Under the pieces are notes generated by a model. The model made no database searches. It had not been told where the DNA came from and saw nothing but the letters and a program-made list of their open reading frames with translations. Positions 13,387 to 63,447 of a DNA stretch of 64,000 nt are shown piece by piece (within the stretch, counting starts at the first letter, position 1; every line of letters begins with the position of its first letter). Both the position numbers and the translations under genes were made by a program. Source of the DNA: Xestospongia bergquistia (taxonomy: Eukaryota; Porifera; Demospongiae; Haplosclerida; Petrosiidae). The stretch covers positions 508,501 to 572,500 of the forward strand of contig OZ014418.1 in NCBI GenBank assembly GCA_963965975.1, in the 5' to 3' direction.

Positions 13387-13401
13387 TGATGAATCTTACT
13401 A

Positions 13402-25757: not shown

Positions 25758-30735
<4,978 letters not shown>

Positions 30736-37492: not shown

Positions 37493-39029
37493 ATGGCCGA
37501 CAGTACAGATACTAAAGAACAGGTAGTCACTCCATGGACTGCACATGCAGCTGAAGGAGCTAACACTATTGACTATGATAAGCTCATTGGTAACTTTATT
37601 TGTAATATACCTTCAGTATCATGTGATATTTCTCCTATAGTGCAGTTTGGTAGTCAAAGAATTGATCAATCTTTATTGGATCGTATTGAGGCTGTGACAA
37701 AGAAACCTCCTCATCACTTCTTACGTCGAAAGATTTTCTTCTCACATAGGTAAAATATTACATTCAAAATAGTTTCCATTAACTCTGTCCAATTTTAGGG
37801 ATGTACCTGATATTTTAGATGCTTATGAAAAAAACAAGCCATTTTTCTTGTACACTGGACGTGGTCCATCTTCTGAGTCCATGCATCTTGGTCATCTTAT
37901 TCCATTCCTATTCACTAAGTAAGACTCATTCCTATAGCCTCTTATAATATATAAACTCAAACTTCATATCAGATACCTACAAGATGTATTTGACGTACCA
38001 CTGGTAATTCAAATGACGGATGATGAGAAATTCCTGTGGAGAGAACTGACTCTTGAAGAAGCTAACCGACTAGCATATGAAAATGCTAAAGATATTATTG
38101 CCTGTGGTTTTGATGTTAATAAGACTTTCATCTTTTCCAACTTAGATTACATGAGGTAACAAAATATAATGTTTTATTTCTAATTTTTGATTGATTTGTT
38201 ATAGCTCATGTCCTAATTTTTATCGCAATGTTGTAAGCATACAGAAGTGTGTCACTTGTAACCAAGCTAAGGGTATCTTTGGTTTTCAAGACACAGACTG
38301 TATTGGTTAGTAGACTATCTACCATATTACTTAATCTTATGATTTACAGGCAAGATGGCTTTTCCTGCTGTCCAGGCTGCTCCATCATTCAGTACTACAT
38401 TTCCAGATATTTTTGGTAGCAATAAAGATATTCGTTGTCTTATTCCATGTGCCATTGATCAGGTAATCAATATTTAATGTGTATCCCAGTTTATCATTAT
38501 GAAAACAGGATCCTTATTTCCGCATGACTAGAGATGTTGCACCACGACTTGGATTCCACAAACCAGCACTTCTTCATTCCTCATTTTTCCCAGCACTCCA
38601 AGGTCCCCAGTCCAAGATGTCAGCCAGTGACCCAACTTCTTCTATCTTTTTAACTGATTCTCCTGATGACATTAAGCACAAAATAAACAAATATGCCTTC
38701 TCAGGTGGACGTGATACCAAAGAGGAACATCAGAAGTATGGAGGCAACACTGAAATTGATGTCTCGTATCAATATTTGACCTTCTTTATGGAAGACGATG
38801 CACGTCTTGCAGAAATAAAACAGGTAAAACCAGTTTTAATAACTAGTTTTAATACCATGTTTAGCAATATGAGAGTGGTGAGATGCTTACTGGTCAGTTG
38901 AAGAAGGAGCTTATAACTGTCTTACAAAATCTTGTCGGAGAACATCAAGCTCGACGTGTTAATGTCACTATGGAAGTTGTTAAGCAGTTTATGACTCCAC
39001 GATCTTTGAACTTCCGAAAGGCAGAATAA
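37493..39029 (+). CDS. WARS1: Cytoplasmic tryptophanyl-tRNA synthetase, copy 1
   Basis: Eight exons (37493-37589, 37641-37749, 37799-37918, 37973-38155, 38205-38305, 38350-38462, 38509-38823, 38865-39029) give 400 aa. Class I signatures are the HIGH-like [13 protein letters not shown] and KMSAS in [14 protein letters not shown]. Residues that bind tryptophan in human TrpRS are kept: Tyr in LYTGRGP and Gln, Thr and Glu in [10 protein letters not shown]. There is no N-terminal WHEP domain; the protein starts [20 protein letters not shown], resembling the human mini form. It charges tRNA-Trp with tryptophan. This copy has PPHHF where others have PIHHF, and its own promoter facing AIDA. It is probably the founder. 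Intron 1 is 51 nt and open in frame. Confidence 0.95.
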
Positions 39030-39406
39030 TGTCCAAAGGATAGGAAGGGACTTTAGCGTGTTTATAATATTAATATCATGTAATCAATTTTCTTAAGTTT
39101 TTATAATAAATTGAATTGTTTTTTCATATTACATGTTCAGGCTCAAAAAACAGTTAGAATCAAATCTTATATAATGAATTCATTGTTAAAAATGAAGTGT
39201 TTGTAGAATACGATATTTTCATTCAATAGATATTGAGTTGAGCTTTAAATATTTCATTTTTGGTGTTCAACACAATATGTTAAAAGCTTTAAACAACGAA
39301 CTTTCTGGCTTTAATAGGTGGGGTTTCAAGAAAGGTGGGTGGCGAAGTTGGTATAAAGCAGCGCTGCGACGATTTCCCCAGAACGCAACTGAACCGTCAA
39401 ACTGAA
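39030..39406 (+). repeat. TrpRS inter-copy spacer 1
   Basis: 377 bp, nearly identical to 40945-41323 and 48045-48429. It holds the upstream copy's polyadenylation signal (AATAAA at about 39105) and the downstream copy's leader, with a TATA-like GTATAAAGC about 55 bp before the ATG. Confidence 0.85.
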
Positions 39407-40944
39407 ATGGCTGAGCCTGCGACTACAGACACTAAAGAACAGGTAGTCACTCCATGGACTGCACATGCAGCTGAAGGAGCTAACACTATTGACTATGATA
39501 AACTCATAGGTAACGTTATTTGTAATAGAACTTCAGTATCATATTTCTCCTATAGTGCAGTTTGGTAGTCAAAGAATTGATCAATCTTTATTGGATCGTA
39601 TTGAGGCTGTGACAAAGAAACCTATTCATCATTTCTTACGTCGAAAGATTTTCTTCTCACATAGGTAAAATATTACATTCAAAATAGTTTCCATTAACTC
39701 TGTCCAATTTTAGGGATGTACCTGATATTTTAGATGCTTATGAAAAAAACAAGCCATTTTTCTTGTACACTGGACGTGGTCCATCTTCTGAGTCCATGCA
39801 TCTTGGTCATCTTATTCCATTCCTATTCACTAAGTAAGACTCATTCCTATAGCCTCTTATAATATATAAACTCAAACTTCATATCAGATACCTACAAGAT
39901 GTATTTGATGTACCACTGGTAATTCAAATGACGGATGATGAGAAATTCCTGTGGAGGGAACTGACTCTTGAAGAAGCTAACCGACTTGCATATGAAAATG
40001 CTAAAGATATTATTGCCTGTGGTTTTGATGTTAATAAGACTTTCATCTTTTCCAACTTAGATTACATGAGGTAACAAAATATAATGTTTTATTTCTAATT
40101 TTTGATTGATTTGTTATAGCTCATGTCCAAATTTTTATCGCAATGTTGTAAGCATACAGAAATGTGTCACTTGTAACCAAGCTAAGGGTATCTTTGGTTT
40201 TCAAGACACAGACTGTATTGGTTAGTAGACTATCTACCATATTACTTAATCTTATGATTTACAGGCAAGATGGCTTTTCCTGCTGTCCAGGCTGCTCCAT
40301 CATTCAGTACTACATTTCCAGATATTTTTGGTAGCAATAAAGATATTCGTTGTCTTATTCCATGTGCCATTGATCAGGTAATCAATATTTAATGTGTATC
40401 CCAGTTTATCATTATGACAACAGGATCCTTATTTCCGCATGACTAGAGATGTTGCACCACGACTTGGATTCCACAAACCAGCACTTCTTCATTCCTCATT
40501 TTTCCCAGCACTCCAAGGTCCCCAGTCCAAGATGTCAGCCAGTGACCCAACCTCTTCTATCTTTTTAACTGATTCTCCTGATGACATTAAGCACAAAATA
40601 AACAAATATGCCTTCTCAGGTGGACGTGATACCAAAGAGGAACATCAGAAGTATGGAGGCAACACTGAAATTGATATCTCGTATCAATATTTGACCTTCT
40701 TCATGGAAGACGATGCACGTCTTGCAGAAATAAAACAGGTAAAACCAGTTTTAATAACTAGTTTTAATACCATGTTTAGCAATATGAGAGTGGTGAGATG
40801 CTTACTGGTCAGTTGAAGAAGGAGCTTATAACTGTCTTACAAAATCTTGTCGGAGAACATCAAGCTCGACGTGTTAATGTCACTATGGAAGTTGTTAAGC
40901 AGTTTATGACTCCACGATCTTTGAACTTCCGAAAGGCAGAATAA
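39407..40944 (+). CDS. WARS1: Cytoplasmic tryptophanyl-tRNA synthetase, copy 2
   Basis: Same eight-exon structure as copy 1, offset by about 1,914 bp and nearly identical including introns. It starts [17 protein letters not shown]. Intron 1 is shortened by 5 nt and still has GT/AG ends. HIGH-like MHLGHL and KMSAS are intact, and no frameshift or premature stop is seen in the spliced frame. The few coding differences from copy 1 include PIHHF and one Ile for Val (EIDISYQY). Confidence 0.93.
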
Positions 40945-41323
40945 TGTCCAAAGGATAGGAAGGGACTTTAGCATGTTTATAATGTTAATATCATGTAATC
41001 AATTTTCTTAAGTTTTTATAATAAATTGAATTGTTTTTTCGTATTACATGTTCAGGCTCAAAAAAAGTTAGAACCAAATCTCATATAATGAATTCATTGT
41101 TATAATGAAGTGTTTGTAGAATACAATATATTCATTCAATAGATATTGAGTTGAGCTTTAAATATTTCATTTTTGGTGTTCAACACAATATGTTAAAAGC
41201 TTTAAACCACGAACTTTCTGGCTTTAATAGGTGGGGTTTCAAGAAAGGTGGGTGGCGAAGTTGGTATAAAGCACCGCTGCGACGATTTCCCCAGAACGCA
41301 ACTGAACCGTCAACCAAACTGAA
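40945..41323 (+). repeat. TrpRS inter-copy spacer 2
   Basis: 379 bp, nearly identical to the spacer at 39030-39406; it includes a polyadenylation signal and the TATA-like TATAAAGC before copy 3. Confidence 0.85.
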
Positions 41324-42861
41324 ATGGCTGAGCCTGCGACTACAGATACTAAAGAACAGGTAGTCACTCCATGGACTGCACATGCAGCTGAAGGAGCTAA
41401 CACTATTGACTATGATAAACTCATAGGTAACGTTATTTGTAATATACCTTCAGTATCATGTGATATTTCTCCTATAGTGCAGTTTGGTAGTCAAAGAATT
41501 GATCAATCTTTATTGGATCGTATTGAGGCTGTGACAAAGAAACCTATTCATCATTTCTTGCGTCGAAAGATTTTCTTCTCACATAGGTAAAATATTACAT
41601 TCAAAATAGTTTCCATTAACTCTGTCCAATTTTAGGGATGTACCTGATATTTTAGATGCTTATGAAAAAAACAAGCCATTTTTCTTGTACACTGGACGTG
41701 GTCCATCTTCTGAGTCTATGCATCTTGGTCATCTTATTCCATTCCTATTCACTAAGTAAGACTCATTCCTAATAGCCTCTTAAACTCAAACTTCATATCA
41801 GATACCTACAAGATGTATTTGATGTACCATTGGTAATTCAAATGACGGATGATGAGAAATTCCTGTGGAGGGAACTGACTCTTGAAGAAGCTAACCGACT
41901 TGCATATGAAAATGCTAAAGATATTATTGCCTGTGGTTTTGATGTTAATAAGACTTTCATCTTTTCCAACTTAGATTACATGAGGTAACAAAATATAATG
42001 TTTTATTTCTAATTTTTGATTGATTTGTTATAGCTCATGTCCAAATTTTTATCGCAATGTTGTAAGCATACAGAAATGTGTCACTTGTAACCAAGCTAAG
42101 GGTATCTTTGGTTTTCAAGACACAGACTGTATTGGTTAGTAGACTATCTACCATATTACTTAACAATCTTATGATTTACAGGCAAGATGGCTTTTCCTGC
42201 TGTCCAGGCTGCTCCATCATTCAGTACTACATTTCCAGATATTTTTGGTAGCAATAAAGATATTCGTTGTCTTATTCCATGTGCCATTGATCAGGTAATC
42301 AATATTTAATGTGTATCCCAGTTTATCATTATGACAACAGGATCCTTATTTCCGCATGACTAGAGATGTTGCACCACGACTTGGATTCCACAAACCAGCA
42401 CTTCTTCATTCCTCATTTTTCCCAGCACTCCAAGGTCCCCAGTCCAAGATGTCGGCCAGTGACCCAACTTCTTCTATCTTTTTAACTGATTCTCCTGATG
42501 ACATTAAACACAAAGTAAACAAATATGCCTTCTCAGGTGGACGTGATACCAAAGAGGAACATCAGAAGTATGGAGGCAACACTGAAATTGATGTCTCATA
42601 TCAATATTTGACCTTCTTTATGGAAGACGATGCACGTCTTGCAGAAATAAAACAGGTAAAACCAGTTTTAATAACTAGTTTTAATACCATGTTTAGCAAT
42701 ATGAGAGTGGTGAGATGTTTACTGGTCAGTTGAAGGAGGAACTTATAACTGTCTTACAAAATCTTGTCGGAGGACATCAAGCTCGACGTGCTAATGTCAC
42801 TATGGAAGTTGTTAAGCAGTTTATGACTCCACGATCTTTGAACTTCCGACAGGCAGAATAA
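41324..42861 (+). CDS. WARS1: Cytoplasmic tryptophanyl-tRNA synthetase, copy 3
   Basis: Intact eight-exon copy starting [12 protein letters not shown]. The last exon differs from copies 1, 2 and 4: [10 protein letters not shown] and a terminal FRQAE, shared only with copy 5. Intron 1 is 51 nt without an in-frame stop. Its 3' flank is the long spacer leading to IDO_A, whereas copies 1, 2 and 4 run into another TrpRS. KMSAS, MHLGHL and tryptophan-pocket residues are all kept. Confidence 0.93.
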
Positions 42862-44216
42862 TGCACATGAATTCTATTTTGATGACTTTAGTGTGCTTTG
42901 TTAGTATTATGGTGTAACCAATTGTTTAAAAAATGATGATAAATACATATTGTAATTTAAAGCTCAATAATGTCTAAAAACACATGCAAAACAGTCCAAT
43001 TTATTATTTATGAGATTACCCAAATATCCTCCCTTTTCTTGGAATTGTTTGTAAAACAAACTAACTGTGAATACTTTGTTAATAGTACCTGACCTCAAAG
43101 ACTATTATAGTATTACTATATTTGCTAAAACGATCAATTTAGTAGTGTGATTGTCACATGCCACATGTTATGATATTTCTAACAACTGCATGGCATGAAT
43201 ATACAAGTAAGTGGGTTGTCTAATTTTATCCTGTTCCCACGTATAGTGATCACATATATAGGTAACAAAGGACATTTACTAAAGACCTTAGACCACAGTT
43301 AACTTGATTTACCACTTGATGCTGTGGTAAGTCAAACTATAGCTATACAAATAGAGTAGTTATATGTTGTATTAGAAACTTTATAAGGTTACCAATCTTA
43401 TAATCAGTATAGTGAAATGATGTATTAGTCTATTTGAAAGTACATGGGAAAACAGACTGGAGACAATAGTAGTTACTAATGATTCACTGACCACAAGATG
43501 ACATGTTAACAAAATGATAACAAAGAAGCTTTTATTATTATATAACTTTGACACCAGTTTATTCAGGTGTTCAGCGCCATGGTGTCTGTGGTAGTGTTAT
43601 GCACAGGCCCACTTTGCTCTATCATCTTTCTTAGAATAAACATGAATATTATCAATGTACTTTTAAGGTATATGTGACCGCTACTACCAGTTGAATTGCT
43701 GACCATTAACAATAACTAATGTTAAAGTTATTCTCAGTAACAAAGGGTCTATAGAGCCAATACGATTTCCTTGTTGTATATATTATGTTGAAGCTTCTAG
43801 ATAATTTAACTAGTACCGAGGAGAACAATAGACATATTAATTATCTTGGAATTAACGTAGTAATTGTGTCATTCCACAATCAAGTTAGCAAATAATTAAA
43901 ACAAGGACATGATGCGATATGTTGTAATGCCATGAGTGAATGTCATATTTCAATACTAACTGATAATATAAAGCTTCCATGGCCACCTAATCTATTGAGC
44001 TAGCTAGATCCTTCTCTTTGCTGATGAGCTAGAAGGCTCTGCAAGGGTGCAAGTGGCCTATGTAACAAAAATTTTGCATCGCTGGGCTGGCGCCGCTCAT
44101 GATTATATAACAACGTCAAAATTATTTCTAATAATATTCACGATAATTTCGGTCAATTATAGTCTATAAAAATAAAAGTGCAGACGCTTACTAACCAGTA
44201 CCAGCAAGCTCGATCG
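42862..44216 (+). repeat. Long spacer, copy 1 (TrpRS3 to IDO_A)
   Basis: About 1.35 kb of non-coding sequence, homologous end to end with the outer parts of 49977-53165. Shared blocks include the TrpRS 3' flank, a GACACCAGTTTATTCAGGTG block (about 43551) and the IDO promoter with GCATCGCTGGGCTGGC. No coding sequence or RNA gene was found. Confidence 0.85.
44165..44170 (+). promoter_or_regulatory. TATA box of IDO_A
   Basis: TATAAA lies 47-52 bp upstream of the ATG, within a stretch (GTCTATAAAAATAAAAGTGC) repeated before IDO_C. Confidence 0.55.
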
Positions 44217-45503
44217 ATGGATTTAGATTCCATCGAAATCTCCTCTCATTCTGGCTTCTTATTAAGCAAGCCGCTATTACCAAGACTTCCGGATCACTAT
44301 GAACCATGGGAGACTATTATTGTTAAACTACCACAGCTGCTACTGATCACGGAAAAACCGAAATTAAGAGATGAAATCAAGGAACTTCCTCTTCTTCCTG
44401 TCTCAGATAGCTTGTTACCAACTGAGCAACATTGGCAAAGAGCATATTGTGTGTTGACCTTTCTCTCTCAAGGCTATTTATGGGAGAGAGGGGAAAGTGG
44501 GACAGTTGATCGTCTCCCTCAACAACTAGCTATCCCATGGCATGAGACAGCATCTAGATGTGGTCTACCTCCAGTAATTACATATGCTAGTGCAGTCTTG
44601 TGGAACTGGGGTTTGAAAGATCCTGATGGACCAATTTCGTTTGATAACTTACGCACCATATTTTCCTTCACAGGTGATCGTAGTGAAGAATGGTTTTATC
44701 TTGTTCATCAGGGAATTGAGCTAGAAGCTGCAGTTGGAGTGAAGGCAGCTGTTGATTGTCTAAGAGCTGTAAAAGTTGAACATCCAGATATTGATTGTAT
44801 TATACAATGTCTTAACAAGGTTACTGAGAGTATCAAAAATATGGTGTCATTTTTATCAAAAATGCAGGATGAATGCAAGCCTGACTTTTTTTTCAACATA
44901 ATGCGTCCATTTCTAGCTGGTAGTAAGAATTTAGTTGCATTCTCTGGTGGTCTAATATTTGAAGGAGTTGATACTGAGCCTAAAAAGTTTATTGGTGGCA
45001 GTGCTGCACAAAGTTCTACACTCCCAGTATTTGATATCTTACTGGGAGTAGAACATAATGGAACTGATGATAAAGAATTTCTAGACATGCAAAAATGGCA
45101 CATGCCACGTTCACATCGTCAGTTCCTCCTAGCTTTGTCCCTCCAGCCCTCTCTGAGAGAGTACGTTCAGCATCATAGATCTAATGAGGTCTTAGTAACA
45201 GCCTATAACAGCTGTATTAAAGAATTGAGTCACTTTCGTAGTCAACACATCAATTTAATAACGCAGTATATTGTAATTCCAGCTCAGAGACAAAAAGAAA
45301 AGAATCAAGGTACTAAAGTAGGAGCATCAGCTACTCAAGGTTTGTCTACTACTGAAGACATGAAAGGAGCATCAGCTACTCATGGAAAAAGTGAGGAGAA
45401 AAAAGGAGAGGGTACATTGGCTGAGCGTGGAACTGGTGGGACTCCTTTTATGGTGTTTTTGAAGGCAGTTCGTGATGATACACTTCGTTGTGAGATTAAA
45501 TAA
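44217..45503 (+). CDS. IDO: Indoleamine 2,3-dioxygenase-like, IDO_A (long-loop type)
   Basis: Intronless, 428 aa, starting at ATG 44217 (MDLDSIEISSHSGF). It oxidises L-tryptophan to N-formylkynurenine if the family assignment holds. Conserved elements: haem-ligand His300 in MPRSHRQFLLAL (human His346), Arg230 in NIMRPFLAG (human Arg231) with preceding Phe residues, GGSAAQSS in the active-site loop, and the C-terminal GTGGTPFMVFLKAVR. Position 164, aligned with human Ser167, is His (FYLVHQG). Between YIVIPAQRQ and GTGG, the segment matching the JK loop, it has one full GLSTTEDMKGASAT unit plus a partial one. It has a TATA box and AATAAA about 37 bp after the stop. Enzyme activity is not proven by sequence. 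Confidence 0.9.
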   Translation: MDLDSIEISSHSGFLLSKPLLPRLPDHYEPWETIIVKLPQLLLITEKPKLRDEIKELPLLPVSDSLLPTEQHWQRAYCVLTFLSQGYLWERGESGTVDRLPQQLAIPWHETASRCGLPPVITYASAVLWNWGLKDPDGPISFDNLRTIFSFTGDRSEEWFYLVHQGIELEAAVGVKAAVDCLRAVKVEHPDIDCIIQCLNKVTESIKNMVSFLSKMQDECKPDFFFNIMRPFLAGSKNLVAFSGGLIFEGVDTEPKKFIGGSAAQSSTLPVFDILLGVEHNGTDDKEFLDMQKWHMPRSHRQFLLALSLQPSLREYVQHHRSNEVLVTAYNSCIKELSHFRSQHINLITQYIVIPAQRQKEKNQGTKVGASATQGLSTTEDMKGASATHGKSEEKKGEGTLAERGTGGTPFMVFLKAVRDDTLRCEIK

Positions 45504-45760
45504 GTCAATGTTTTAGTAACTATAGCTGCTGTTATTCCCAATAAAAATTTTAATTAAAGGCTGTTTTTGTGGATATTATATATTTTGTATGCTGTATAAT
45601 TGTTATAAATTTAATTATTATCAATGCCATTGCTAATTGGAAAAGTGCAGTCGTATTCCACGTATAGCCAGCCCCACCCCTTAGCAGAGTGGATCAGCTG
45701 AGCTCCGCCAAAAACAACCTTGGGGTCACGAGGTGTGTCGGAGGCGTTGTCGTTCAGAAA
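45504..45760 (+). other. IDO_A 3' flank and psiIDO_B promoter region
   Basis: 257 bp including AATAAA near 45539 and a GC-rich block (CCAGCCCCACCCCTTAGCAG) repeated upstream of IDO_D and psiIDO_F. Confidence 0.6.
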
Positions 45761-46680
45761 ATGGATCTATTATCTTTTAACTCTTTTTCTCATTCAGCTT
45801 TTTTACCTGAAGAGCCGCCATTATCAAGACTCCTAGATCACTATGAACAATGGGAGACCATTATTGATGTACTACCTCAGCTATTGAAAGAGTGGAAATT
45901 AAGAGATAAAATCAAGGAACTTCCTCTTCTTTCTCTCTCAGATAGCTGGTTACCAACTGAACGACATTGGCAAATAGCATATTGTGTGTTGACCTTTCTC
46001 TCTCAAGGCTATTTATGGGAGAGAGGAGAGAGTGGGACAGTTAGTATCCTCCCTCGACAACTAGCTATCCCATGGTGGGAAGTATCAGCAGATGTGGTCT
46101 ACCTCCTGTTGGGACCTATACTAGTACAGTACTATGGAATTGGAGCCTAAAAGATCCCAGCTGTTCTATTTCATTTGATAACTTACGTACCATGTTCTCT
46201 TTCACAGGTACCATTGATTGCTTAACTGCTGTAGTGAATGAAGATAACAATTGTATTGTACAAAGTCTTAATACAGTTGCTGAGACTACCAAAAAGATGT
46301 TGTCAATTTTAGAAAGAATGTACGATGAATGTGATCCTGATACTTTTTATAAGCGTGTCCGTCCATTTCAAGCTGGTAGTAAAAATTTAGTTGCATTCTC
46401 TGGTGGTCTAATATTTGAAGGAGTTGATACTGAGCCTAAAAAGTTTATTGGTGGCAGTGCTGGACAAAGTTCTACACTTCCAGTATTTGATATCTTATTG
46501 GGAGTAGAACATCATGGAACTGATTAAGAATTTCTAGATCTGCAGAGGTGGCACATGCCACGTTCACATCGTCAGTTCCTCCTAGCTTTGTCACTCCAAC
46601 CCTCTCTGAGAGAATATGTCCAGTGTCATAGAACTAATGAAGTATTAGTAACAGCTTATAACAGCTGTATCAAAGAATTG
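45761..46680 (+). pseudogene. psiIDO_B, truncated into TrpRS copy 4
   Basis: Begins ATGGATCTATTATC like IDO_D and is its closest relative. Four lesions are seen: a 1-base loss at GTATCAGCAGATG (IDO_D has GCAAGATG), loss of about 75 bp covering the distal haem-pocket segment (46206-46212 joins GGTAC to TTGATTGC), a stop at GGAACTGATTAAG, and truncation at 46670-46680, where the sequence switches to TrpRS exon 2. The haem-ligand region MPRSHRQF is still readable downstream of the stop. Confidence 0.9.
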
Positions 46681-48044
46681 ATCAATCTTTATTGAATCGT
46701 ATTGAGGCTGTGACAAAGAAACCTATTCATCATTTCTTATGTCGAAAGATTTTCTTCTCACATAGGTAAAATATTACATTCAAAATAGTTTCCATTAACT
46801 CTGTCCAATTTTAGGGATGTACCTGATATTTTAGATGCTTATGAAAAAAACAAGCCATTTTTCTTGTACACTGGACGTGGTCCATCTTCTGAGTCTATGC
46901 ATCTTGGTCATCTTATTCCATTCCTATTCACTAAGTAAGACTCATTCCTATAGCCTCTTATAATATATAAACTCAAACTTCATAACAGATACCTACAAGA
47001 TGTATTTGATGTACCACTTGTAATTCAAATGACGGATGATGAGAAATTCTTATGGAGGGAACTGACTCTTGAAGAAGCTAACCGACTTGCATATGAAAAT
47101 GCTAAAGATATTATTGCCTGTGGTTTTGATGTTAATAAGACTTTCATCTTTTCCAACTTAGATTACATGAGGTAACAAAATATAATGTTTTATTTCTAAT
47201 TTTTGATTGATTTGTTATAGCTCATGTCCTAATTTTTATCGCAATGTTGTAAGCATACAGAAATGTGTCACTTGCAACCAAGCTAAGGGTATCTTTGGTT
47301 TTCAAGACACAGACTGTATTGGTTAGTAAACTATCTATCATATTACTTAATCTTATGATTTACAGGCAATATGGCTTTTCCTGCTGTCCAGGCTGCTCCA
47401 TCATTCAGTACTACATTTCCAGATATTTTTGGTAGCAATAAAGATATTCGTTGTCTTATTCCATGTGCCATTGATCAGGTAATCAATATTTAATGTGTAT
47501 CCCAGTTTATCATTATGACAACAGGATCCTTATTTCCGCATGACTAGAGATGTTGCACCACGACTTGGATTCCACAAACCAGCACTTCTTCATTCCTCAT
47601 TTTTCCCAGCACTCCAAGGTCCCCAGTCCAAGATGTCAGCCAGTGACCCAACCTCTTCTATCTTTTTAACTGATTCTCCTGATGACATTAAACACAAAAT
47701 AAACAAATATGCTTTCTCAGGTGGACGTGATACCAAAGAGGAACATCAGAAGTATGGAGGCAACACTGAAATTGATGTCTCGTATCAATATTTGACCTTC
47801 TTCATGGAAGACGATGCAACTCTTGCAAAATAAAACAGGTAAAACCAGTTTTAATAACTATTTTTAATACCATGTTTAGCAATATGAGAGTGGTGAGATG
47901 CTTACTGGTCAGTTGAAGAAGGAGCTTATAACTGTCTTACAAAATCTTGTCGGAGAACATCAAGCTCGACGTGTTAATGTCACTATGGAAGTTGTTAAGC
48001 AGTTTATGACTCCACGATCTTTGAACTTCCGAAAGGCAGAATAA
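46670..48044 (+). pseudogene. psiTrpRS copy 4 (5'-truncated, frameshifted)
   Basis: It lacks the promoter, exon 1 and the first part of exon 2; the sequence begins inside exon 2 at CAAAGAATTGATCAATC. Introns and splice sites are otherwise kept. A 1-base loss at GATGCAACTCTTGCAAAATA (about 47814-47832) causes a stop right after DDATLAK. Other changes are Asp to Asn (SLLNRIE) and Lys to Asn (GNMAF). KMSAS is intact but cannot rescue the product. No start codon or promoter of its own is seen. Confidence 0.9.
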
Positions 48045-48429
48045 TGTCCAAAGGATAGGAAGGGACTTTAGCATGTTTATAATGTTAATATCATGTAATC
48101 AATTTTCTTAAGTTTTTATAATAAATTGAATTGTTTTTTCATATTACATGTTCAGGCTCAAAAAACAGTTAGAAAAAATCTTATATAATGAATTCATTGT
48201 TAAAAATGAAGTGTTTGTAGAATACAATATATTCATTTTAATAGATATTGAGTTGAGCTTTAAATATTTTATTTTTGGTGTTCAACACAATAATTATGTT
48301 AAAAGCTTTAAACCACGAACTTTCTGGCTTCAATAGGTGGGGTTTCAAGAAAGGTGGGTGGCGAAGTTGGTATAAAGCAGCGCTGCGACGATTTCCCCAG
48401 AACGCAACTGAACCGTCAACCAAACTGAA
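48045..48429 (+). repeat. TrpRS inter-copy spacer 3
   Basis: 385 bp, nearly identical to spacers 1 and 2, with a small insertion (AATTATG) near 48292; it supplies the promoter for copy 5. Confidence 0.85.
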
Positions 48430-51139: not shown

Positions 51140-51444
51140 TAGTATAGACATTTGTGTCATATCAATAGCCTCTGATGTATTAGTCTATTTGAAAGTGCAT
51201 GTGAAAACAGACCGGAAACAATAGTAGTTACTAATGATTCAACGCCCACAAGATGACATGTTAACAAAATGATAACAAAAGAAACTTTTATTATTATATA
51301 TACAAGAAATCATAAACCTCAATTCACTATTTAATACTACTATAGTAGAATATGTACAACTTCATACTCATTTAATTTGACATAAGTATTAATTATATCC
51401 ATGTGTATCATTCAGTCTATACTATTAAATGCATATACTATAAT

Positions 51445-51475
51445 AAAGTAATATTACTATTAGTAATATTACTTT
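51445..51475. repeat. Perfect short hairpin
   Basis: AAAGTAATATTACT, a 3-nt spacer, then its exact reverse complement AGTAATATTACTTT. No T-run terminator or RNA gene context; probably incidental AT-rich palindrome. Confidence 0.6.
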
Positions 51476-53111: not shown

Positions 53112-53117
53112 TATAAA
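53112..53117 (+). promoter_or_regulatory. TATA box of IDO_C
   Basis: TATAAA about 50 bp upstream of the ATG, in the same context as the IDO_A TATA box. Confidence 0.55.
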
Positions 53118-53165
53118 AATAAAAGTGCAGACGTTATTACTAACCAGCACTAGCAAGCTCGATCG

Positions 53166-54416
53166 ATGGATTCACATTTAGCTTCTTTCGAAATCTCCTC
53201 TCGTTCTGGCTTCTTATTAAGAGAGCCACTATTATCAAGACTTCCGGATCACTATGAACAATGGGAGACTATTATTGATGTACTACCTCACCTATTGAAA
53301 GAATGGAAATTAAGAGATAAAATCAAGGAACTTCCTCTTCTTCCTGTCTCAGATAGCTGGTTACCAACTGAACGACATTGGCAAAGAGCATATTGTGTGT
53401 TGACCTTTCTCTCTCAAGGCTATTTATGGGAGAGAGGAGAAAGTGGGACAGTTAATACCCTCCCTCGACAACTAGCTATCCCATGGTATGAAACATCATT
53501 TAGATGTGGTCTACCTCCAGTACTTACATATGCTAGTGTAGTCTTGTGGAACTGGAGTTTGAAAGATCCCGATGGACAAATTTCGTTTGATAACTTACAC
53601 ACCATATTTTCCTTCACTGGTGATCGCAGTGAAGAATGGTTTTATCTTGTTCATCAGGGAATTGAGCTAGAAGCTACAGTTGGAGTGAAGGCAGCTGTTG
53701 ATTGTCTAAAAGCTGTAGCACATCAAGATAACAATTGTATTATACAATACCTTAACAATGTTACTGAGAGTATCAAAAATATGGTGTCATTTTTATCAAA
53801 AATGCAGGATGAATGCGAGCCTGACTTTTTTTTCAACATAATGCGTCCTTTTCTAGCTGGTAGTAAGAATTTAGTTGCATTCTCTGGTGGTCTAATATTT
53901 GAAGGAGTTGATACTGAGCCTAAAAAGTTCATTGGTGGTAGTGCTGCACAAAGTTCTACACTCCCAGTATTTGATATCTTACTGGGAGTAGAACATCATG
54001 GAACTGATGATAAAGAATTTCTAGACATGCAAAAATGGCACATGCCACGTTCACATCGTCAGTTCCTCCTAGCTTTGTCACTCCAACCCTCTCTGAGAAA
54101 GTATATCCAGTGTCACAAGACTGATGAGGCATTAGTAACAGCTTATAACAGCTGTATCAAAGAATTGGGTCACTTTCGTAGTCAACACATCAATTTAATA
54201 ACACGGTATATTGTAATTCCAGCTCAGAAACAAAAAGAAAAAAATCAAGTTGGTTTGTCTACTAACGAAGAGATGAAAGGAGCATCAGCTACTCATGGAA
54301 AAAGTGAGGAGAAAAAAGGAGAAGGTACATTGGCTGAGCGTGGAACTGGTGGGGCACATTTTATGGTGTTTTTGAAGGCAGTTCGTGATGATACACTTCG
54401 TTGTGAGATTAAATAA
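53166..54416 (+). CDS. IDO: Indoleamine 2,3-dioxygenase-like, IDO_C (long-loop type)
   Basis: Intronless, 416 aa, ATG at 53166 (MDSHLASFEISSRSGF). It is the counterpart of IDO_A in the duplicated block, with the same promoter, 5' end and 3' flank. Haem-ligand motif MPRSHRQF, Arg in NIMRPFLAG, GGSAAQSS and GTGGAHFMVF are present. The Ser167-equivalent is His (FYLVHQG). The JK-loop-like insert is a single GLSTNEEMKGASATH unit. Reading frame intact. Confidence 0.9.
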   Translation: MDSHLASFEISSRSGFLLREPLLSRLPDHYEQWETIIDVLPHLLKEWKLRDKIKELPLLPVSDSWLPTERHWQRAYCVLTFLSQGYLWERGESGTVNTLPRQLAIPWYETSFRCGLPPVLTYASVVLWNWSLKDPDGQISFDNLHTIFSFTGDRSEEWFYLVHQGIELEATVGVKAAVDCLKAVAHQDNNCIIQYLNNVTESIKNMVSFLSKMQDECEPDFFFNIMRPFLAGSKNLVAFSGGLIFEGVDTEPKKFIGGSAAQSSTLPVFDILLGVEHHGTDDKEFLDMQKWHMPRSHRQFLLALSLQPSLRKYIQCHKTDEALVTAYNSCIKELGHFRSQHINLITRYIVIPAQKQKEKNQVGLSTNEEMKGASATHGKSEEKKGEGTLAERGTGGAHFMVFLKAVRDDTLRCEIK

Positions 54417-54664
54417 GTCAATGTTTTAGTAACTATAGCTGCTGTTATTCCCAATAAAAATTTTAATTAAAGGCTGTTTTTGTGTATATTATATATTTTG
54501 TATGCTGTATAATTGTTATAAATTTAATTATTATCAATGACATTGCTAATTGGAAAAGTGCAGTCGTATTCCACGTATAGCCAGCCCCACCCCTTAGCAG
54601 AGTGAGCTCCGCCAAAAACAACCTTGGGGTCACGAGGTGTGTCGGAGGCGTTGTCGTTCAGAAA
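54417..54664 (+). other. IDO_C 3' flank and IDO_D promoter region
   Basis: 248 bp, near-copy of 45504-45760 with AATAAA near 54451 and the CCAGCCCCACCCCTTAGCAG block. No TATA box. Confidence 0.6.
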
Positions 54665-55834
54665 ATGGATCTATTATCTTTTAACTCTTTTTCTCATTCA
54701 GCTTTTTTACCTGAAGAGCCGCCATTATCAAGACTCCTAGATCACTATGAACAATGGGAGACCATTATTGATGTACTACCTCAGCTATTGAAAGAGTGGA
54801 AATTAAGAGATAAAATCAAGGAACTTCCTCTTCTTTCTGTCTCAGATAGCTGGTTACCAACTGAACTACATTGGCAAAGAGCATATTGTGTTTTGACCTT
54901 TCTCTCTCAAGGCTATTTATGGGAGAGAGGAGAGAGTGGGACAGTTAGTATCCTCCCTCAACAACTAGCTATCCCATGGTGGGAAGTATCAGCAAGATGT
55001 GGTCTACCTCCTGTTGGGACTTATACTAGTACAGTACTGTGGAATTGGAGCCTAAAAGATCCCAGCTGTTCTATTTCATTTGATAACGTACGTACCATGT
55101 TCTCTTTCACAGGTACTCGATCTGAAGAATGGTTCTATCTTGTTCCATTGGGTATTGAACTAGAAGCTATAGCAGGAGTAAAGGCAACTGTTGATTGCTT
55201 AACAGCTGTAGTGAATGAAGATAACAATTGTATTGTACAAAGTCTTAATACAGTTGCTGAGACTACCAAAAAGATGTTGTCAATTTTAGAGAAAATGTAC
55301 GATGAATGTGATCCTGATACTTTTTATAAACGTGTCCGTCCATTTCAAGCTGGTAGTAAGAATTTAGTTGCATTCTCTGGTGGTCTAATATTTGAAGGAG
55401 TTGATACTGAGCCTAAAAAGTTTGTTGGTGCCAGTGCTGGGCAAAGTTCTACACTTCCAGTATTTGATATCTTATTGGGAGTAGAACATCATGGAACTGA
55501 TAAAGAATTTCTAGATCTGCAGAGGTGGCACATGCCACGTTCACATCGTCAGTTCCTCCTAGCTTTGTCACTCCAACCCTCTCTGAGAGAGTATGTCCAG
55601 TGTAATAGAACTAATGAGGTCTTAGTAACAGCCTATAACAACTGTATTAAAGAATTGGGTCACTTTCGTAGTCAACACATTATATTAGTAACACGATATA
55701 TTGTGGGTCCTGCCAATAAGCAAAACATAGAGAGGAAAGAAGGCACATTAGCTACTCGTGGAACAGGTGGATCAGATTTCATGGTGTTTTTGAAAAATGT
55801 TCGTGATGATACAATGCATTGTATAATGGAATAG
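54665..55834 (+). CDS. IDO: Indoleamine 2,3-dioxygenase-like, IDO_D (short-loop type)
   Basis: Intronless, 389 aa, ATG at 54665 (MDLLSFNSFSHSAF). It is the intact counterpart of psiIDO_B. It keeps MPRSHRQF (haem ligand), VRPFQAG (Arg), GASAGQSS and GTGGSDFMVFLKNVR. The short loop (GPANKQNIERKEGTLATR) is about the length of the human one. It is the most divergent of the intact copies in the distal pocket, where the Ser167-equivalent is Pro (FYLVPLGIELEA), and it may differ in activity. Confidence 0.88.
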   Translation: MDLLSFNSFSHSAFLPEEPPLSRLLDHYEQWETIIDVLPQLLKEWKLRDKIKELPLLSVSDSWLPTELHWQRAYCVLTFLSQGYLWERGESGTVSILPQQLAIPWWEVSARCGLPPVGTYTSTVLWNWSLKDPSCSISFDNVRTMFSFTGTRSEEWFYLVPLGIELEAIAGVKATVDCLTAVVNEDNNCIVQSLNTVAETTKKMLSILEKMYDECDPDTFYKRVRPFQAGSKNLVAFSGGLIFEGVDTEPKKFVGASAGQSSTLPVFDILLGVEHHGTDKEFLDLQRWHMPRSHRQFLLALSLQPSLREYVQCNRTNEVLVTAYNNCIKELGHFRSQHIILVTRYIVGPANKQNIERKEGTLATRGTGGSDFMVFLKNVRDDTMHCIME

Positions 55835-55967: not shown

Positions 55968-57203
55968 ATGCATTCGATTGAACTTTCTTCCTTCAATATC
56001 ACTCATACCGGTTTCTTACCTCAAGAGCCACTGTTATCAAGACTTCTGGATCACTATGAACAATGGGAGACTATTATTGATGTACTACCTCAACTATTGA
56101 AAGAATTGAAATTAAGAGATAAAATCAAGGAACTTCCTCTTCTTCCTGTCTCAGATAGCTGGTTACCAACTGAGCAACATTGGCAAAGAGCATATTGTGT
56201 GTTGACCTTTCTCTCTCAAGGCTATTTATGGGAGAGAGGAGAAAGTGGGACAGTTGATACTCTCCCTCGACAACTAGCTATCCCATGGTATGAAACATCG
56301 TTTAGATGTGGTCTACCTCCAGTACTTACATATGCTAGTGTAGTCTTGTGGAACTGGAGTTTGAAAGATCCTAATGGACAAATTTCGTTTGATAACCTAC
56401 ATACCATATTTTCCTTCACTGGTGATCGTAGTGAAGAATGGTTTTATCTTGTTCATCAGGGAATTGAGCTAGAAGCTACAGTTGGAGTGAAGGCAGCTGT
56501 TGATTGTCTAAAAGCTGTAGCACATCAAGATAACAATTGTATCATTCAAAACCTTAACAATGTTACTGAGTGTATCAAAAATATGGTATCGTTTTTATCA
56601 AAAATGCAGGATGAATGTGAGCCTGACTTTTTTTTCAATAAAATGCGTCCATTTCTAGCTGGTAGTAAGAATTTAGTTGCATTCTCTGGTGGTCTAATAT
56701 TTGAAGGAGTTGATACTGATCCTAAAAAGTTTATTGGTGGCAGTGCTGCACAAAGTTCTACACTCCCAGTATTTGATATCTTACTGGGAGTAGAACATCG
56801 TGGAACTGATGATAAAGAATTTCTAGACATGCAAAAATGGCACATGCCACGTTCACATCGTCAGTTCCTCCTAGCTTTGTCACTCCAACCCTCTCTGAGA
56901 GAGTATGTCCAGTGTCACAAGACTGATGAGGCATTAGTAACAGCCTATAACAGCTGTATTAAAGAATTGAGTCACTTTCGTAGTCAACACATCAATTTAA
57001 TAACACGGTATATTGTACTTCCAGCTCAGAGACAAAAAGAAAAGAATCAAGTTGGTTTGTCTACGATGAAAGGAGAATCAGCTACTCATGGAAAAATTGA
57101 GGAGAAAAAAGGAGAGGGTACATTGGCTGAGCGTGGAACTGGTGGAGCACCTTTTATGGTGTTTTTGAAGGCAGTTCGTGATGATACACTTCGTTATATA
57201 TGA
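55968..57203 (+). CDS. IDO: Indoleamine 2,3-dioxygenase-like, IDO_E (long-loop type)
   Basis: Intronless, 411 aa, ATG at 55968 (MHSIELSSFNITHTGF). Haem ligand (MPRSHRQF), Arg (KMRPFLAG) and GGSAAQSS are conserved, with His in the distal position. The loop has a shortened GLSTMKGESATHGK unit. The C-terminus is altered: CGTTATATATGA ends the frame as RYI, while relatives end R(C/Y)EIK, so an inserted ATAT shortens the tail by two residues. Otherwise intact. Confidence 0.88.
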   Translation: MHSIELSSFNITHTGFLPQEPLLSRLLDHYEQWETIIDVLPQLLKELKLRDKIKELPLLPVSDSWLPTEQHWQRAYCVLTFLSQGYLWERGESGTVDTLPRQLAIPWYETSFRCGLPPVLTYASVVLWNWSLKDPNGQISFDNLHTIFSFTGDRSEEWFYLVHQGIELEATVGVKAAVDCLKAVAHQDNNCIIQNLNNVTECIKNMVSFLSKMQDECEPDFFFNKMRPFLAGSKNLVAFSGGLIFEGVDTDPKKFIGGSAAQSSTLPVFDILLGVEHRGTDDKEFLDMQKWHMPRSHRQFLLALSLQPSLREYVQCHKTDEALVTAYNSCIKELSHFRSQHINLITRYIVLPAQRQKEKNQVGLSTMKGESATHGKIEEKKGEGTLAERGTGGAPFMVFLKAVRDDTLRYI

Positions 57204-58618: not shown

Positions 58619-58799
58619 GTCAATGTTTTAGTAACTATAGCTGCTGTTATTCCCAATAAAAATTTAATTAAAGGTTGTTTTGTGTATATTAGATATTTTG
58701 TATGCTATATAATTGTTATAAATGAAATTTTTATCAATGACATTACTAATTGGAAAGGGGCTTTGAGGTATGAAAGTAGGCATTTTGCTCCTCCTATTT

Positions 58800-59036
58800 A
58801 GAGGTATGTCCAGTGTAATAGAACTAATGAGGTCTTAGTAACAGCCTTATCAGCTGTATCAAAGAATTGGATCACTTTCATAGTCAAAATATTGCATTAG
58901 TAACATGATATATTGTGAGTCCTGCCAATAAGCTAAACTTAGAGAGGAAAGTTGGTACATTGGCTACTAGTGGAACAGGTGGATTGGTGTTTTTTAAAAA
59001 TGGTTCATGATGATACAATGCATTGTATGATTGAAT
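58800..59036 (+). pseudogene. 3' fragment of a short-loop IDO
   Basis: It starts at GAGGTATGTCCAGTG (just after the haem-ligand region) and runs to the C-terminal coding end, with indels (GCCTTATCAGC) and degraded loop and GTGG motifs. No start codon; about 235 bp. Confidence 0.8.
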
Positions 59037-59198: not shown

Positions 59199-60377
59199 AT
59201 GCATTCAATTGAACTTTCTTCCTTCAATATCTCCCATACCGGTTTCTTACCTCAAGAGCCGCCATTATCAAGACTCCTAGATCACTATGAACAATGGGAG
59301 ACCATTATTGATGTACTACCTCAGCTACTGAAAGAATGGAAATTAAGAGATAAAATCAAGGAACTTCCTCTCCTTCCTGTCTCAGATAGCTGGTTACCAA
59401 CTGAACAACATTGGCAAAGAGCATATTGTGTGTTGACCTTACTCTCTCAAGGCTATTTATGGGAGAGAGGAGAAGGTGGGACAGTTAATAGTCTTCCTCT
59501 ACAACTAGCTATCCCATGGCATGAAACAGCATCTAGATGTGGTCTACCTCCAGTACTTACATATGCTAGTGCAGTCTTGTGGAACTGGAGTTTGAAAGAT
59601 CCTGATGAACCAATTTCATTTAATAACTTACACACCATATTTTCCTTCACTGGTGATCGTAGTGAAGAATGGTTTTATCTTGTTCATCAGGGCATTGAGC
59701 TAGAAGCTGCAGTTGGAGTGAAGGCAGCTGTTGATTGTCTAACAGCTGTAGCACATCAAGATAGTGATTGTATTATAAAATGTCTTAACAAAGTTACTGA
59801 GAGTATCAAAAACATGTTACTGACTTTACAGAGAATGTATGATGAATGCAAACCTGATTTCTTCTACAACAAAATGCGTCCATTTCAAGCTGGTAGTAAG
59901 AATTTAGTTGCATTCTCTGGTGGTCTAATATTTGAAGGAGTTGATACTGAGCCTAAAAAGTTTATTGGTGGCAGTGCTGCACAAAGTTCTACACTCCCAG
60001 TATTTGATATCTTACTGGGAGTAGAACATCATGGAACTGATGATAAAGAATTTCTAGACACGCAAAAATGGCATATGCCACGTTCACATCGTCAGTTCCT
60101 GCTAGCTTTGTCACTCCAGCCCTCTCTGAGAGAGTACGTTCAGCATCATAGATCTAATGAGGTCTTAGTTACAGCCTATAACAACTGTATTAAAGAATTG
60201 GGTCACTTTCGTAGTCAACACATTATATTAGTAACACGATATATTGTGGGTCCTGCCAATAAGCAAAACATAGAGAGGAAAGAAGGTACATTAGCTACTC
60301 GTGGAACAGGTGGATCAGATTTCATGGTGTTTTTGAAAAATGTTCGTGATGATACAATGCATTGTATGATTGAATAG
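59199..60377 (+). CDS. IDO: Indoleamine 2,3-dioxygenase-like, IDO_G (short-loop type)
   Basis: Intronless, 392 aa. The start at 59199 (MHSIELSSFNISHTGF) is chosen by analogy with IDO_E and IDO_H; an in-frame ATG at 59154 would add 15 residues. The N-terminal half resembles E and H, while the C-terminal end (GPANKQNIERKEGTLATRGT) resembles IDO_D, consistent with exchange between copies. Conserved: MPRSHRQF, KMRPFQAG, GGSAAQSS. Distal position His. Confidence 0.9.
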   Translation: MHSIELSSFNISHTGFLPQEPPLSRLLDHYEQWETIIDVLPQLLKEWKLRDKIKELPLLPVSDSWLPTEQHWQRAYCVLTLLSQGYLWERGEGGTVNSLPLQLAIPWHETASRCGLPPVLTYASAVLWNWSLKDPDEPISFNNLHTIFSFTGDRSEEWFYLVHQGIELEAAVGVKAAVDCLTAVAHQDSDCIIKCLNKVTESIKNMLLTLQRMYDECKPDFFYNKMRPFQAGSKNLVAFSGGLIFEGVDTEPKKFIGGSAAQSSTLPVFDILLGVEHHGTDDKEFLDTQKWHMPRSHRQFLLALSLQPSLREYVQHHRSNEVLVTAYNNCIKELGHFRSQHIILVTRYIVGPANKQNIERKEGTLATRGTGGSDFMVFLKNVRDDTMHCMIE

Positions 60378-61991: not shown

Positions 61992-62277
61992 GTCAATGTT
62001 TTAGTAACTATAGCTGCTGTTATTCCCAATAAAAAATTTTAATTAAAGGCTGTTTTGTGTATATTAGATATTTTGTATGCTATATAATTGTTATAAATTT
62101 AATTATTATCAAAGTCGTTGCTAATTGGAAAGGGACTTTGATGTATGAAAGTAGGTACTTGCTCCTCCTATTTAGAGGTATGTAGGTATCAGGCAGTAAT
62201 GTTAATTATGCTATGTCTGAATAACTAATATAATGTATAATACAATTATATTACGAGTGGGAGGTGTCATCATTGTT
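61992..62277 (+). other. IDO_H 3' flank / psiIDO_I promoter region
   Basis: 286 bp; AATAAA near 62029, and a block (TTGCTCCTCCTATTTAGAGG) also found at 58785-58804. Confidence 0.55.
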
Positions 62278-63447
62278 ATGCATTCAATTGAACTTTCTTC
62301 CTTCAATATCTCCCATACCGGTTTCTTACCTCAAGAGCCGCAATTATCAAGACTTCCGGATCGCTATGAACAATGGGAGACCATTATTGATGTACTACCT
62401 CACCTATTGAAAGAATGGAAATTAAGAGATAAAATCAAGGAACTTCCTCTCCTTCCTGTCTCAGATAGCTGGTTACCAACTGAACAACATTGGCAAAGAG
62501 CATATTGTGTGTTGACCTTACTCTCTCAAGGCTATTTATGGGAGAGAGGAGAAAGTGGGACAGTTGACACCCTCCCTCAACAACTAGCTATCCCATGGTA
62601 TGAAACATCGTTTAGATGTGGTCTACCTCCAGTAATTACATATGCTAGTGCAGTCTTGTGGAACTGGAGTTTGAAAGATCCTGATGAACCAATTTCATTT
62701 AATAACTTACACACCATATTTTCCTTCACTGGTGATCGTAGCAAAGAATGGTTTTATCTTGTTCATCAGGGCATTGAGCTAGAACCTACAGTTAGAGTGA
62801 AGGCAGCTGTTGATTGTCTAAAAGCTGTAGCACATCAAGATAACAATTGTATTGTACAATGTCTTAACAAAGTTGCTGAGGGTATCAAAAATATGGTGTC
62901 ATATTTGGTGAGAATGTATGATGAATGCAAGCCTGATTTCTTCTACAACAAAATGTGTCTATATCAAGCTGGTAGCAATAATTTAATTGCACTCTCTGGT
63001 GTTCTAATATTAGAAGGAGTTGATACTGACCCTAAAAAGTTTATTGGTGGCAGTGCTACACAAAGTCTACACTCCCTGAATTTTATATCTTACTGGGAGT
63101 AGAACATCATGGAACTGATGATAAAGAATTTCTAGACATGCAAAAATGGCACATGCCATGTTCACATTGTCAGTTCCTTGTCACTCCAACCCTCTCTGAG
63201 AGAGTATGTTCAGCATCATAGATCTAATGAGGTCTTAGTAACAATCTATAACAACTGTATTAAAGAATTGGGTCACTTTCGTAGTCAACACATTATATTA
63301 GTAACACGATATATTGTGGGTCCTGCCAATAAGCAAAACATAGAGAGGAAAGAAGGTACATTAGCTACTTGTGGAACAGGTGGATAAAATTTCATGGTGT
63401 TTTTGAAAAATGTTCGTGATGATACACTTCACTGTATAATTACATAA
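62278..63447 (+). pseudogene. psiIDO_I (short-loop type)
   Basis: Begins with an intact MHSIELSSFN start. Lesions: 1-base loss at CACAAAGTCTACACTC (about 63060), loss of about 7 bp at CAGTTCCTTGTCACTCC, Arg-to-Cys next to the haem ligand (SHCQF) and in MRP (KMCLYQAG), and a stop at GGTGGATAAAATTTC just after the GTGG motif. Loss of the Arg231-equivalent plus frameshifts indicate a non-functional copy. Confidence 0.88.

What the first reader, a model, noticed from the sequence alone, without database searches (positions are those of the whole stretch)
37493..63447. Co-amplified gene cluster of IDO-like dioxygenases interleaved with tryptophanyl-tRNA synthetases
Five TrpRS units and ten IDO units (six intact) are mixed in one tandem array, and one block containing both families was duplicated as a unit. 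In mammals IDO1 and WARS1 lie apart but are co-induced by interferon-gamma; TrpRS is thought to spare IDO-expressing cells from their own tryptophan depletion. Physical linkage plus co-amplification in a probable sponge suggests a stand-alone tryptophan-control module: deprivation of invaders or symbionts, kynurenine signalling, or dosage coupling. I know of no description of such a cluster. The functional link is inference.
Basis: partly seen in the sequence, partly recalled or inferred. Interest (0 to 1): 0.95.

Follow-up and report, generated by a model that had tools for sequence, protein, structure and literature searches.

The report
Sponge tryptophan-breakdown and tryptophan-charging gene cluster
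In what is almost certainly a sponge chromosome, the genes that destroy the amino acid tryptophan and the genes that load tryptophan for protein synthesis sit mixed in one repeatedly duplicated cluster, and related sequences, probably from other sponges, seem to carry the same two genes together, which suggests an old physical link between burning and using tryptophan.

Summary
Window 37493-63447 holds five cytosolic-type TrpRS units (four intact, one truncated and frameshifted) and ten intronless animal-type IDO units (six intact), head-to-tail on the plus strand. A TrpRS-TrpRS-IDO-IDO block was duplicated as a unit; the copies meet where a cut IDO joins a cut TrpRS. The source is most likely a demosponge (TrpRS 85% identical to Amphimedon).

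Two results go further. (1) In the 146-Mb assembly all 15 IDO matches and all 37 TrpRS matches found lie in this array, and no TDO match was found: it looks like the only source of cytosolic TrpRS and of Trp dioxygenase. KMO and a kynureninase-like gene are tandemly amplified elsewhere, and the only 3-HAO match lies 39 kb away.

Most likely: a high-capacity Trp-to-kynurenine locus whose linked TrpRS dosage protects translation. Activity, co-expression and purpose are inferred; no shared promoter motif was found; the relatives' contigs could not be read. Neutral linkage remains the main rival.

The parts
37493..39029 (+). T1, intact cytosolic-type TrpRS gene, 8 exons, 400 aa; own start of exon 1 and 5' flank
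39407..40944 (+). T2, intact TrpRS gene, 402 aa
41324..42861 (+). T3, intact TrpRS gene, 402 aa; protein identical to T5
44217..45503 (+). I1, intact intronless IDO, 428 aa
45752..46681 (+). I2, truncated and frameshifted IDO, sister of I4
46670..46681 (+). junction of the duplicated blocks: truncated IDO joined to TrpRS exon 2; the two matches overlap by 12 bp, and I4 and T2 share nine bases there
46670..48044 (+). T4, TrpRS pseudogene (no exon 1, start of exon 2 missing, frameshift in exon 7)
48430..49976 (+). T5, intact TrpRS gene, 402 aa
53166..54416 (+). I3, intact intronless IDO, 416 aa
54665..55834 (+). I4, intact intronless IDO, 389 aa; most divergent intact copy, Pro at position 167
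55968..57203 (+). I5, intact intronless IDO, 411 aa
57507..58615 (+). I6, broken IDO (three pieces in three frames)
58790..59035 (+). I7, C-terminal IDO remnant
59199..60377 (+). I8, intact intronless IDO, 392 aa
60519..61991 (+). I9, intact intronless IDO, 490 aa, with a loop stretched by a 45-bp repeat
62293..63441 (+). I10, broken IDO
39569..46681 (+). duplicated block, copy A (T2 from exon 2, T3, I1, I2)
46670..55834 (+). duplicated block, copy B (T4, T5, I3, I4), with a stretch between about 50.5 and 52.4 kb that is largely absent from copy A and AT-rich

Best explanation
This is a tryptophan-allocation locus of a demosponge. An intronless animal-type IDO gene and the housekeeping cytosolic TrpRS gene were already linked in an ancestor of many sponges; in this species both were amplified in tandem, partly as one block. 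SHOWN: gene content, intact frames, pairwise dN/dS well below 1, IDO fold and catalytic residues, TrpRS signature residues, no other cytosolic-TrpRS, IDO or TDO match in the assembly, tandem KMO genes. SHOWN WITH LESS CERTAINTY: tandem kynureninase-like genes; conserved linkage, which rests on equal contig lengths, and the sponge origin of those contigs. INFERRED: the IDOs convert Trp to N-formylkynurenine at high capacity and feed an amplified kynurenine branch; because this drains Trp, raised dosage (and perhaps shared chromatin) of TrpRS keeps tRNA-Trp charged when Trp is low; selection on that balance keeps the genes together. Whether the purpose is metabolite production, tissue clearance or starving microbes is open.
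For: All 15 IDO and all 37 TrpRS matches found in the 146-Mb assembly lie in the array; TDO 0 matches. The PF00579 search also finds synthetase exons on C4 and C14, so intron-split relatives are visible; AlaRS gave two places 116 kb apart on C14, no head-to-tail array. 11 of the 20 non-own IDO rows P0010-P0030 share an exact contig length and source with a TrpRS exon row, five contigs being 3,892-31,228 bp; shifted-length control for lengths over 3 kb: mean 0.12, maximum 2. Linked IDOs fall on both main branches of the sponge-like IDO group, 8 on one (support 89/81) and 3 on the branch with the window copies (99/97). dN/dS 0.30-0.46 for IDO pairs, 0-0.23 for TrpRS pairs. Proximal His and Phe226 kept in 32 of 32 non-vertebrate rows, Arg231 in 30 of 32. 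Fold matches to human IDO2 and IDO1, query TM 0.83-0.86 in the 50 rows listed. KMO: five single-frame genes (one tested against PDB); kynureninase-like: five units.
Against: None of six motifs tried occurs in the 250 bp upstream of any of ten intact genes, and the best words of 8-10 bases are shared by only 2 of 4 TrpRS and 2 of 6 IDO upstreams. No expression data. IDO copies are older (dS 0.12-0.45) than TrpRS copies (0.03-0.07), so most IDO gains came without TrpRS gains, unless conversion homogenised TrpRS. 10 of the 20 best TrpRS rows do not match an IDO contig. No named sponge (Amphimedon, Halichondria, Oscarella, Corticium all have TrpRS) is among the 120 listed of 495 IDO hits, so the pair may be lost there. 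Window IDOs carry His or Pro, not Ser, at position 167, so activity is not assured.
Confidence: 0.5

Rival explanations
1. Neutral linkage: an IDO retrocopy landed beside TrpRS in an early sponge and stayed there by inertia; the locus is prone to unequal exchange, so TrpRS copies were carried along, without functional coupling.
For: IDO copies are intronless while TrpRS has seven introns; the block junction lies inside two genes at a short shared word and leaves a broken copy of each; four of ten IDO and one of five TrpRS are dead; no shared promoter motif.
Against: Linkage spans both main IDO branches, with IDO identities down to 50% between linked contigs, long for chance adjacency; extra TrpRS copies are intact with dN/dS of at most 0.23; KMO and a kynureninase-like gene are amplified at other places.
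Confidence: 0.3
2. Anti-microbial starvation module: induced IDO depletes Trp around or inside cells to restrain microbes, TrpRS spares the host, as with interferon-gamma in mammals.
For: IDO family, fold and residues. [quoted passage not shown] IDO is upregulated during reproduction in the sponge Geodia macandrewii together with immune genes (passages of PMC12153309).
Against: Downstream enzymes are amplified too, which starvation does not need. [quoted passage not shown] No interferon-type motif in 250 bp upstream.
Confidence: 0.2
3. Effector-metabolite pathway: the amplified IDO, KMO and kynureninase-like enzymes make kynurenines up to quinolinate as ecological or tissue-clearance signals; TrpRS is a bystander.
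For: In Suberites domuncula the HAD (3-HAO) gene is induced and quinolinic acid attracts grazing gastropods to dying tissue (passages of PMC3210614); the only 3-HAO match of this genome lies 39 kb from the array.
Against: Does not explain TrpRS amplification or the apparent conserved linkage; the 3-HAO neighbourhood is one case found after the fact.
Confidence: 0.3
4. Assembly artefact: the array is a false expansion of one IDO and one TrpRS gene.
For: TrpRS copies are 97-99% identical in exons and introns.
Against: Copies differ in exons, introns and flanks, IDO copies by up to about 20%; the array sits in a 7.6-Mb contig; contigs of 6,008 and 784,151 bp from another source carry two and three related IDOs.
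Confidence: 0.03

Closest known systems
Mammalian IDO1/WARS1 axis (co-induced by interferon-gamma)
   Same: Same two enzyme families, proposed same logic of degrading Trp while keeping it for translation (PMC11346423, abstract and section 10, for the co-induction).
   Different: Here they are interleaved and co-amplified, IDO is intronless, and no interferon-type motif was found.
Vertebrate IDO1-IDO2 tandem pair
   Same: Neighbouring IDO paralogues; [quoted passage not shown]
   Different: Two copies, no TrpRS between them as far as I recall; here ten with TrpRS.
Sponge kynurenine pathway, HAD of Suberites domuncula
   Same: Kynurenine pathway used as an inducible system in a demosponge (PMC3210614, passages).
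   Different: That work concerns 3-HAO and quinolinate; no IDO array and no TrpRS in the passages seen.
Self-resistance aminoacyl-tRNA synthetases inside microbial antibiotic clusters (recalled)
   Same: A synthetase copy placed next to the genes that threaten its amino acid.
   Different: There it is a second, drug-resistant synthetase; here the copies appear to be the only cytosolic enzyme. Recalled, not tested.

Membership tests
Indoleamine 2,3-dioxygenase (PF01231) | Profile match over the whole domain | tested here: met
   Six complete copies E 7.4e-117 to 2.6e-121
Indoleamine 2,3-dioxygenase (PF01231) | IDO fold | tested here: met
   One copy tested, I3: pLDDT 89.4, best PDB matches IDO2 and IDO1, E 1.0e-30
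Indoleamine 2,3-dioxygenase (PF01231) | Proximal heme His346 and substrate residues F226, R231 (human numbering recalled) | tested here: met
   His and F226 in 32 of 32, R231 in 30 of 32 non-vertebrate rows; present in all six intact window copies
Indoleamine 2,3-dioxygenase (PF01231) | Dioxygenase activity on Trp with useful affinity | not testable with these tools
   Position 167 is His in five and Pro in one of the six intact copies; in human IDO1 a Ser167 to Thr change raises Km (passage of PMC11593294)
Cytosolic eukaryotic TrpRS (WARS1 type) | Full-length homology to cytosolic TrpRS with class I signatures | tested here: met
   T1: E 3.7e-192 to PDB 2quh; HLGH and KMSAS present in the four intact copies (signatures recalled)
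Cytosolic eukaryotic TrpRS (WARS1 type) | N-terminal WHEP domain of vertebrate WARS1 | tested here: not met
   T1 residue 3 aligns with chain residue 76 of 2quh, so nothing is left for it; the named sponge rows list PF00579 only, many vertebrate rows add PF00458
IDO/WARS co-induced defence axis | Co-induction by an immune signal | not testable with these tools
   No expression data; no ISRE, GAS or NF-kB consensus (motifs recalled) within 250 bp upstream of ten genes
Conserved metabolic gene cluster in animals | Linkage kept in distant relatives | tested here: inconclusive
   11 shared contig lengths against a control mean of 0.12, but the contigs are unnamed and were not read, and no control gene pair could be run

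The most novel reading that the evidence does not exclude
IDO and the housekeeping TrpRS form an ancestral sponge gene pair, kept together across deep splits because degradation and charging of tryptophan must be balanced: an interferon-free forerunner of, or convergent parallel to, the mammalian IDO1/WARS1 axis, which this species scaled up as a unit together with the rest of its kynurenine pathway.
Probability: 0.35. Interest if true: 0.9.

Novelty: new variant of a known kind. Interest (0 to 1): 0.8.

Why it matters
In mammals the coupling of IDO and TrpRS is treated as a product of interferon signalling. If the two genes are physically linked through sponges, the coupling would predate interferon or have arisen twice, and it can be tested directly: this species offers a natural array in which dosage of a destroying and a using enzyme for the same amino acid has been co-amplified. 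It would also be one of few animal loci (as far as I know) in which a catabolic enzyme and its cognate synthetase form a conserved cluster, and it points to an amplified kynurenine pathway in a sponge.

Tried and rejected
Search for the locus outside animals: alignment A2 gave no confirmed relative in GTDB genomes (7 pattern stretches, 0 confirmed) or in viral contigs (14 stretches, 0 confirmed); with two short patterns each, this only says that no close copy of this IDO type was found there. Loss of enzyme function as in IDO-derived myoglobins (recalled): not favoured, because the substrate residues are kept. Shared promoter: none found. Co-divergence of IDO and TrpRS exon in the 11 linked contigs: rank correlation 0.11, p 0.43 (linear 0.31), so no support; the exon is very conserved and IDO paralogues may be mixed. 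General tandem inflation of synthetases in this assembly: AlaRS (PF01411) gave 12 exon matches in two places 116 kb apart on C14, and the non-C8 places of PF00579, on C4 and C14, are not arrays (their identity was not tested). The kynureninase assignment is modest: exon hits lie below the family's whole-protein cut-off, and the same search rang in 9 of 14 control genomes but over the cut-off in only 2; one peptide matches PDB kynureninases at E 0.003 and the other matched nothing. For PF01494 only 19 of 44 candidates were scored, so the KMO count is a lower bound.

The shifted-length control over all lengths has mean 0.49 and maximum 4; short contigs are therefore weak evidence, and all 11 matches are above 3 kb. 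Genome searches go exon by exon and the assembly's completeness is not given, so absence of TDO or of a further TrpRS means not found at that sensitivity.

Rows dropped before counts: 82 of 120 listed IDO rows were entered (38 rows with named vertebrate records or without contig were left out) and 111 of 120 TrpRS rows (9 rows had no contig length); one search listed 120 of 495 hits and 120 of 843. The tree used 34 of the 120 listed proteins and the six intact window copies. Alignment A1 used 34 of those 120 (two of them, P0003 and P0006, are window copies) plus I3.
Full report
WHAT IS THERE. The stretch 37493-63447 carries, head-to-tail on the plus strand, the order T1 T2 T3 I1 I2* T4* T5 I3 I4 I5 I6* I7* I8 I9 I10* (T = TrpRS, I = IDO, * = broken). 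T1, T2, T3 and T5 each splice from 8 exons into a complete TrpRS of 400 or 402 residues; T3 and T5 encode the same protein with 14 synonymous differences. T4 begins inside exon 2 and has a frame-breaking base loss in exon 7. The six intact IDOs are single open frames of 389-490 residues; four others are truncated or broken. IDO copies have no introns, whereas TrpRS has seven, 41-54 bp long in T1.

HOW IT GREW. The stretch 39569-43417 matches 46670-50537 at 97.4%, and 43542-46211 matches 52453-55116 at 89.6%. I2 with its upstream spacer is 97.7% identical to I4 with its spacer, at most 87.6% to the other copies compared, and I1 is closest to I3 (93.0%). So an ordered T-T-I-I block was duplicated. 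The two copies meet at 46670-46681, where a cut IDO runs into TrpRS exon 2; I4 and T2 share nine bases there. TrpRS copies are young (dS 0.03-0.07, introns 97-99% identical), IDO copies older (dS 0.12-0.45). Three IDO rows (P0004, P0007, P0009) share one contig length, 784,151; P0009 pairs with I4 in the tree (100/98), while P0004 and P0007 fall among the other window types, so at least two IDO types predate that split.

WHAT THE PROTEINS ARE. The six intact IDOs match PF01231 at E 7.4e-117 or better. Among the 120 listed of 495 hits, the nearest rows that name an organism are vertebrate IDO1 and IDO2 at 36-39% identity. The I3 model (pLDDT 89.4, pTM 0.87) is closest to IDO2 and IDO1 structures. 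The proximal His, Phe226 and Tyr126 are invariant in 32 non-vertebrate rows and Arg231 is kept in 30 of 32 (human numbering recalled). Position 167 varies: His 9, Ser 16, Pro 6, Asp 1; of the 11 linked relatives 8 have Ser and 3 Pro. Human IDO1 has Ser and a change to Thr raises Km (passage of PMC11593294), while a solved human S167H mutant still holds Trp (PDB 6cxu title). T1 matches a solved cytosolic TrpRS end to end apart from that protein's N-terminal extension (E 3.7e-192). dN/dS is 0.30-0.46 between IDO copies and 0-0.23 between TrpRS copies, as expected under purifying selection.

THE GENOME AROUND IT. The window lies at C8:508501-572500 of a 146.46-Mb assembly in 21 contigs of unstated completeness. 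All 15 IDO matches and all 37 TrpRS matches found lie in the array; TDO gave none. The broader PF00579 search found the five array copies plus places on C4 and C14, presumably TyrRS and mitochondrial TrpRS (identity not tested), which shows that intron-split synthetases are visible. As a control, AlaRS gave two places 116 kb apart, no array. The array therefore seems to be the only source of cytosolic TrpRS and of Trp dioxygenase. The only 3-HAO match is at C8:506093-506592 on the other strand, 2 kb outside the window and 39 kb from T1; by my arithmetic one gene lands within 40 kb of the array with a chance near 0.0005, but I looked after the fact. Five single-frame genes of 451-469 residues (stop to stop) look like KMO (the one compared with PDB: E 2.8e-133), four in tandem on C3 and one on C15. 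A kynureninase-like gene is repeated five times on C2 (the assignment is modest).

CONSERVED LINKAGE. The protein database gives the length of the longest contig that carries each protein. Shifting the lengths by 1-200 bases either way gives a mean of 0.12 and a maximum of 2 coincidences for lengths over 3 kb. Of the 20 non-own IDO rows P0010-P0030, 11 match; of the 20 best TrpRS rows, 10 match, and one more lower down. Five contigs are at most 31 kb, so the genes must be close there; in the longer contigs distance is unknown. The window's own TrpRS exons are not listed, so a missing match means little. In the tree the linked IDOs occupy both main branches of the sponge-like group, one of them with moderate support (89/81). 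The contigs bear no organism names: sponge origin is inferred from the IDO tree and from the TrpRS exons, 9 of 11 of which are 82-93% identical to the window's; the other two (73 and 77%) are no closer than many unlinked rows. For comparison, full-length TrpRS is 85% identical in Amphimedon and 78% in Halichondria.

HOW IT MOST LIKELY WORKS. Trp either goes to kynurenine (IDO) or onto tRNA (TrpRS). Amplified IDO followed by amplified KMO and probably kynureninase makes a strong sink; more TrpRS keeps translation supplied. [quoted passage not shown] In sponges, IDO rises in Geodia macandrewii during reproduction (passages of PMC12153309), and in Suberites the kynurenine enzyme HAD is induced in dying tissue, where quinolinate attracts grazers (passages of PMC3210614). 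Sponge IDO homologues have been noted before without evidence of conserved function (passages of PMC9857879). I hold functional coupling at about 0.5, neutral linkage at 0.3.

WHAT SPEAKS AGAINST. No common promoter element, no expression data, most IDO gains without TrpRS gains, no IDO from a named sponge in the 120 listed rows, substituted position 167 in the window copies, no correlation between IDO and TrpRS-exon divergence across the linked contigs, and a linkage argument that rests on contig lengths, not on reading the contigs.

LITERATURE. Among the rows listed by searches (open-licence PMC; listings only, cut at 8-20 rows) no title or abstract start describes an IDO-TrpRS gene cluster; subscription papers and preprints are not covered.

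Noticed in passing
L022 and L023 (C3:1669627-1685502), L024 (C15:519601-520545): Five single-frame kynurenine 3-monooxygenase-like genes, four in tandem; one of the five compared with PDB.
   Followed up: partly
L025-L027 (C2:4931368-4952456): Five-fold tandem of a kynureninase-like gene with introns, one unit inverted.
   Followed up: partly
L017, C8:506093-506592 (just left of window position 1): The only 3-hydroxyanthranilate dioxygenase match of the genome lies 39 kb from the IDO-TrpRS array.
   Followed up: partly
window 61602-61870: A 45-bp repeat, six copies, stretches the loop of I9 before the GTGG motif to 117 residues against 18-51 in the other five intact copies; this corresponds to the JK loop of human IDO1 (from memory).
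   Followed up: no
window 50538-52450: AT-rich stretch largely absent from the first block, with an imperfect inverted repeat at 50901-51146, possibly a transposon remnant.
   Followed up: no
window 26687-29879, minus strand: Two long open frames (299 and 762 aa) without Pfam match; a 69-bp tandem repeat at 29051-29503.
   Followed up: no
window 8525-10735, 12376-13395, 21365-22468, 31739-33166, 33658-34407: Neighbours: BK potassium channel, SERTA protein, leucine-rich repeat protein, Sas10/Utp3, ARMT1-like phosphatase.
   Followed up: no
P0254/P0259 and P0263/P0281/P0288: The sponges Oscarella lobularis and Corticium candelabrum also have two and three TrpRS proteins on contigs of one length each (one Corticium row is an isoform), so TrpRS duplication may be common in sponges.
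   Followed up: no
C14:4008325-4011767 and C14:4127653-4156367: Two AlaRS places 116 kb apart, the second spread over 29 kb with long introns, unlike the compact TrpRS genes.
   Followed up: no
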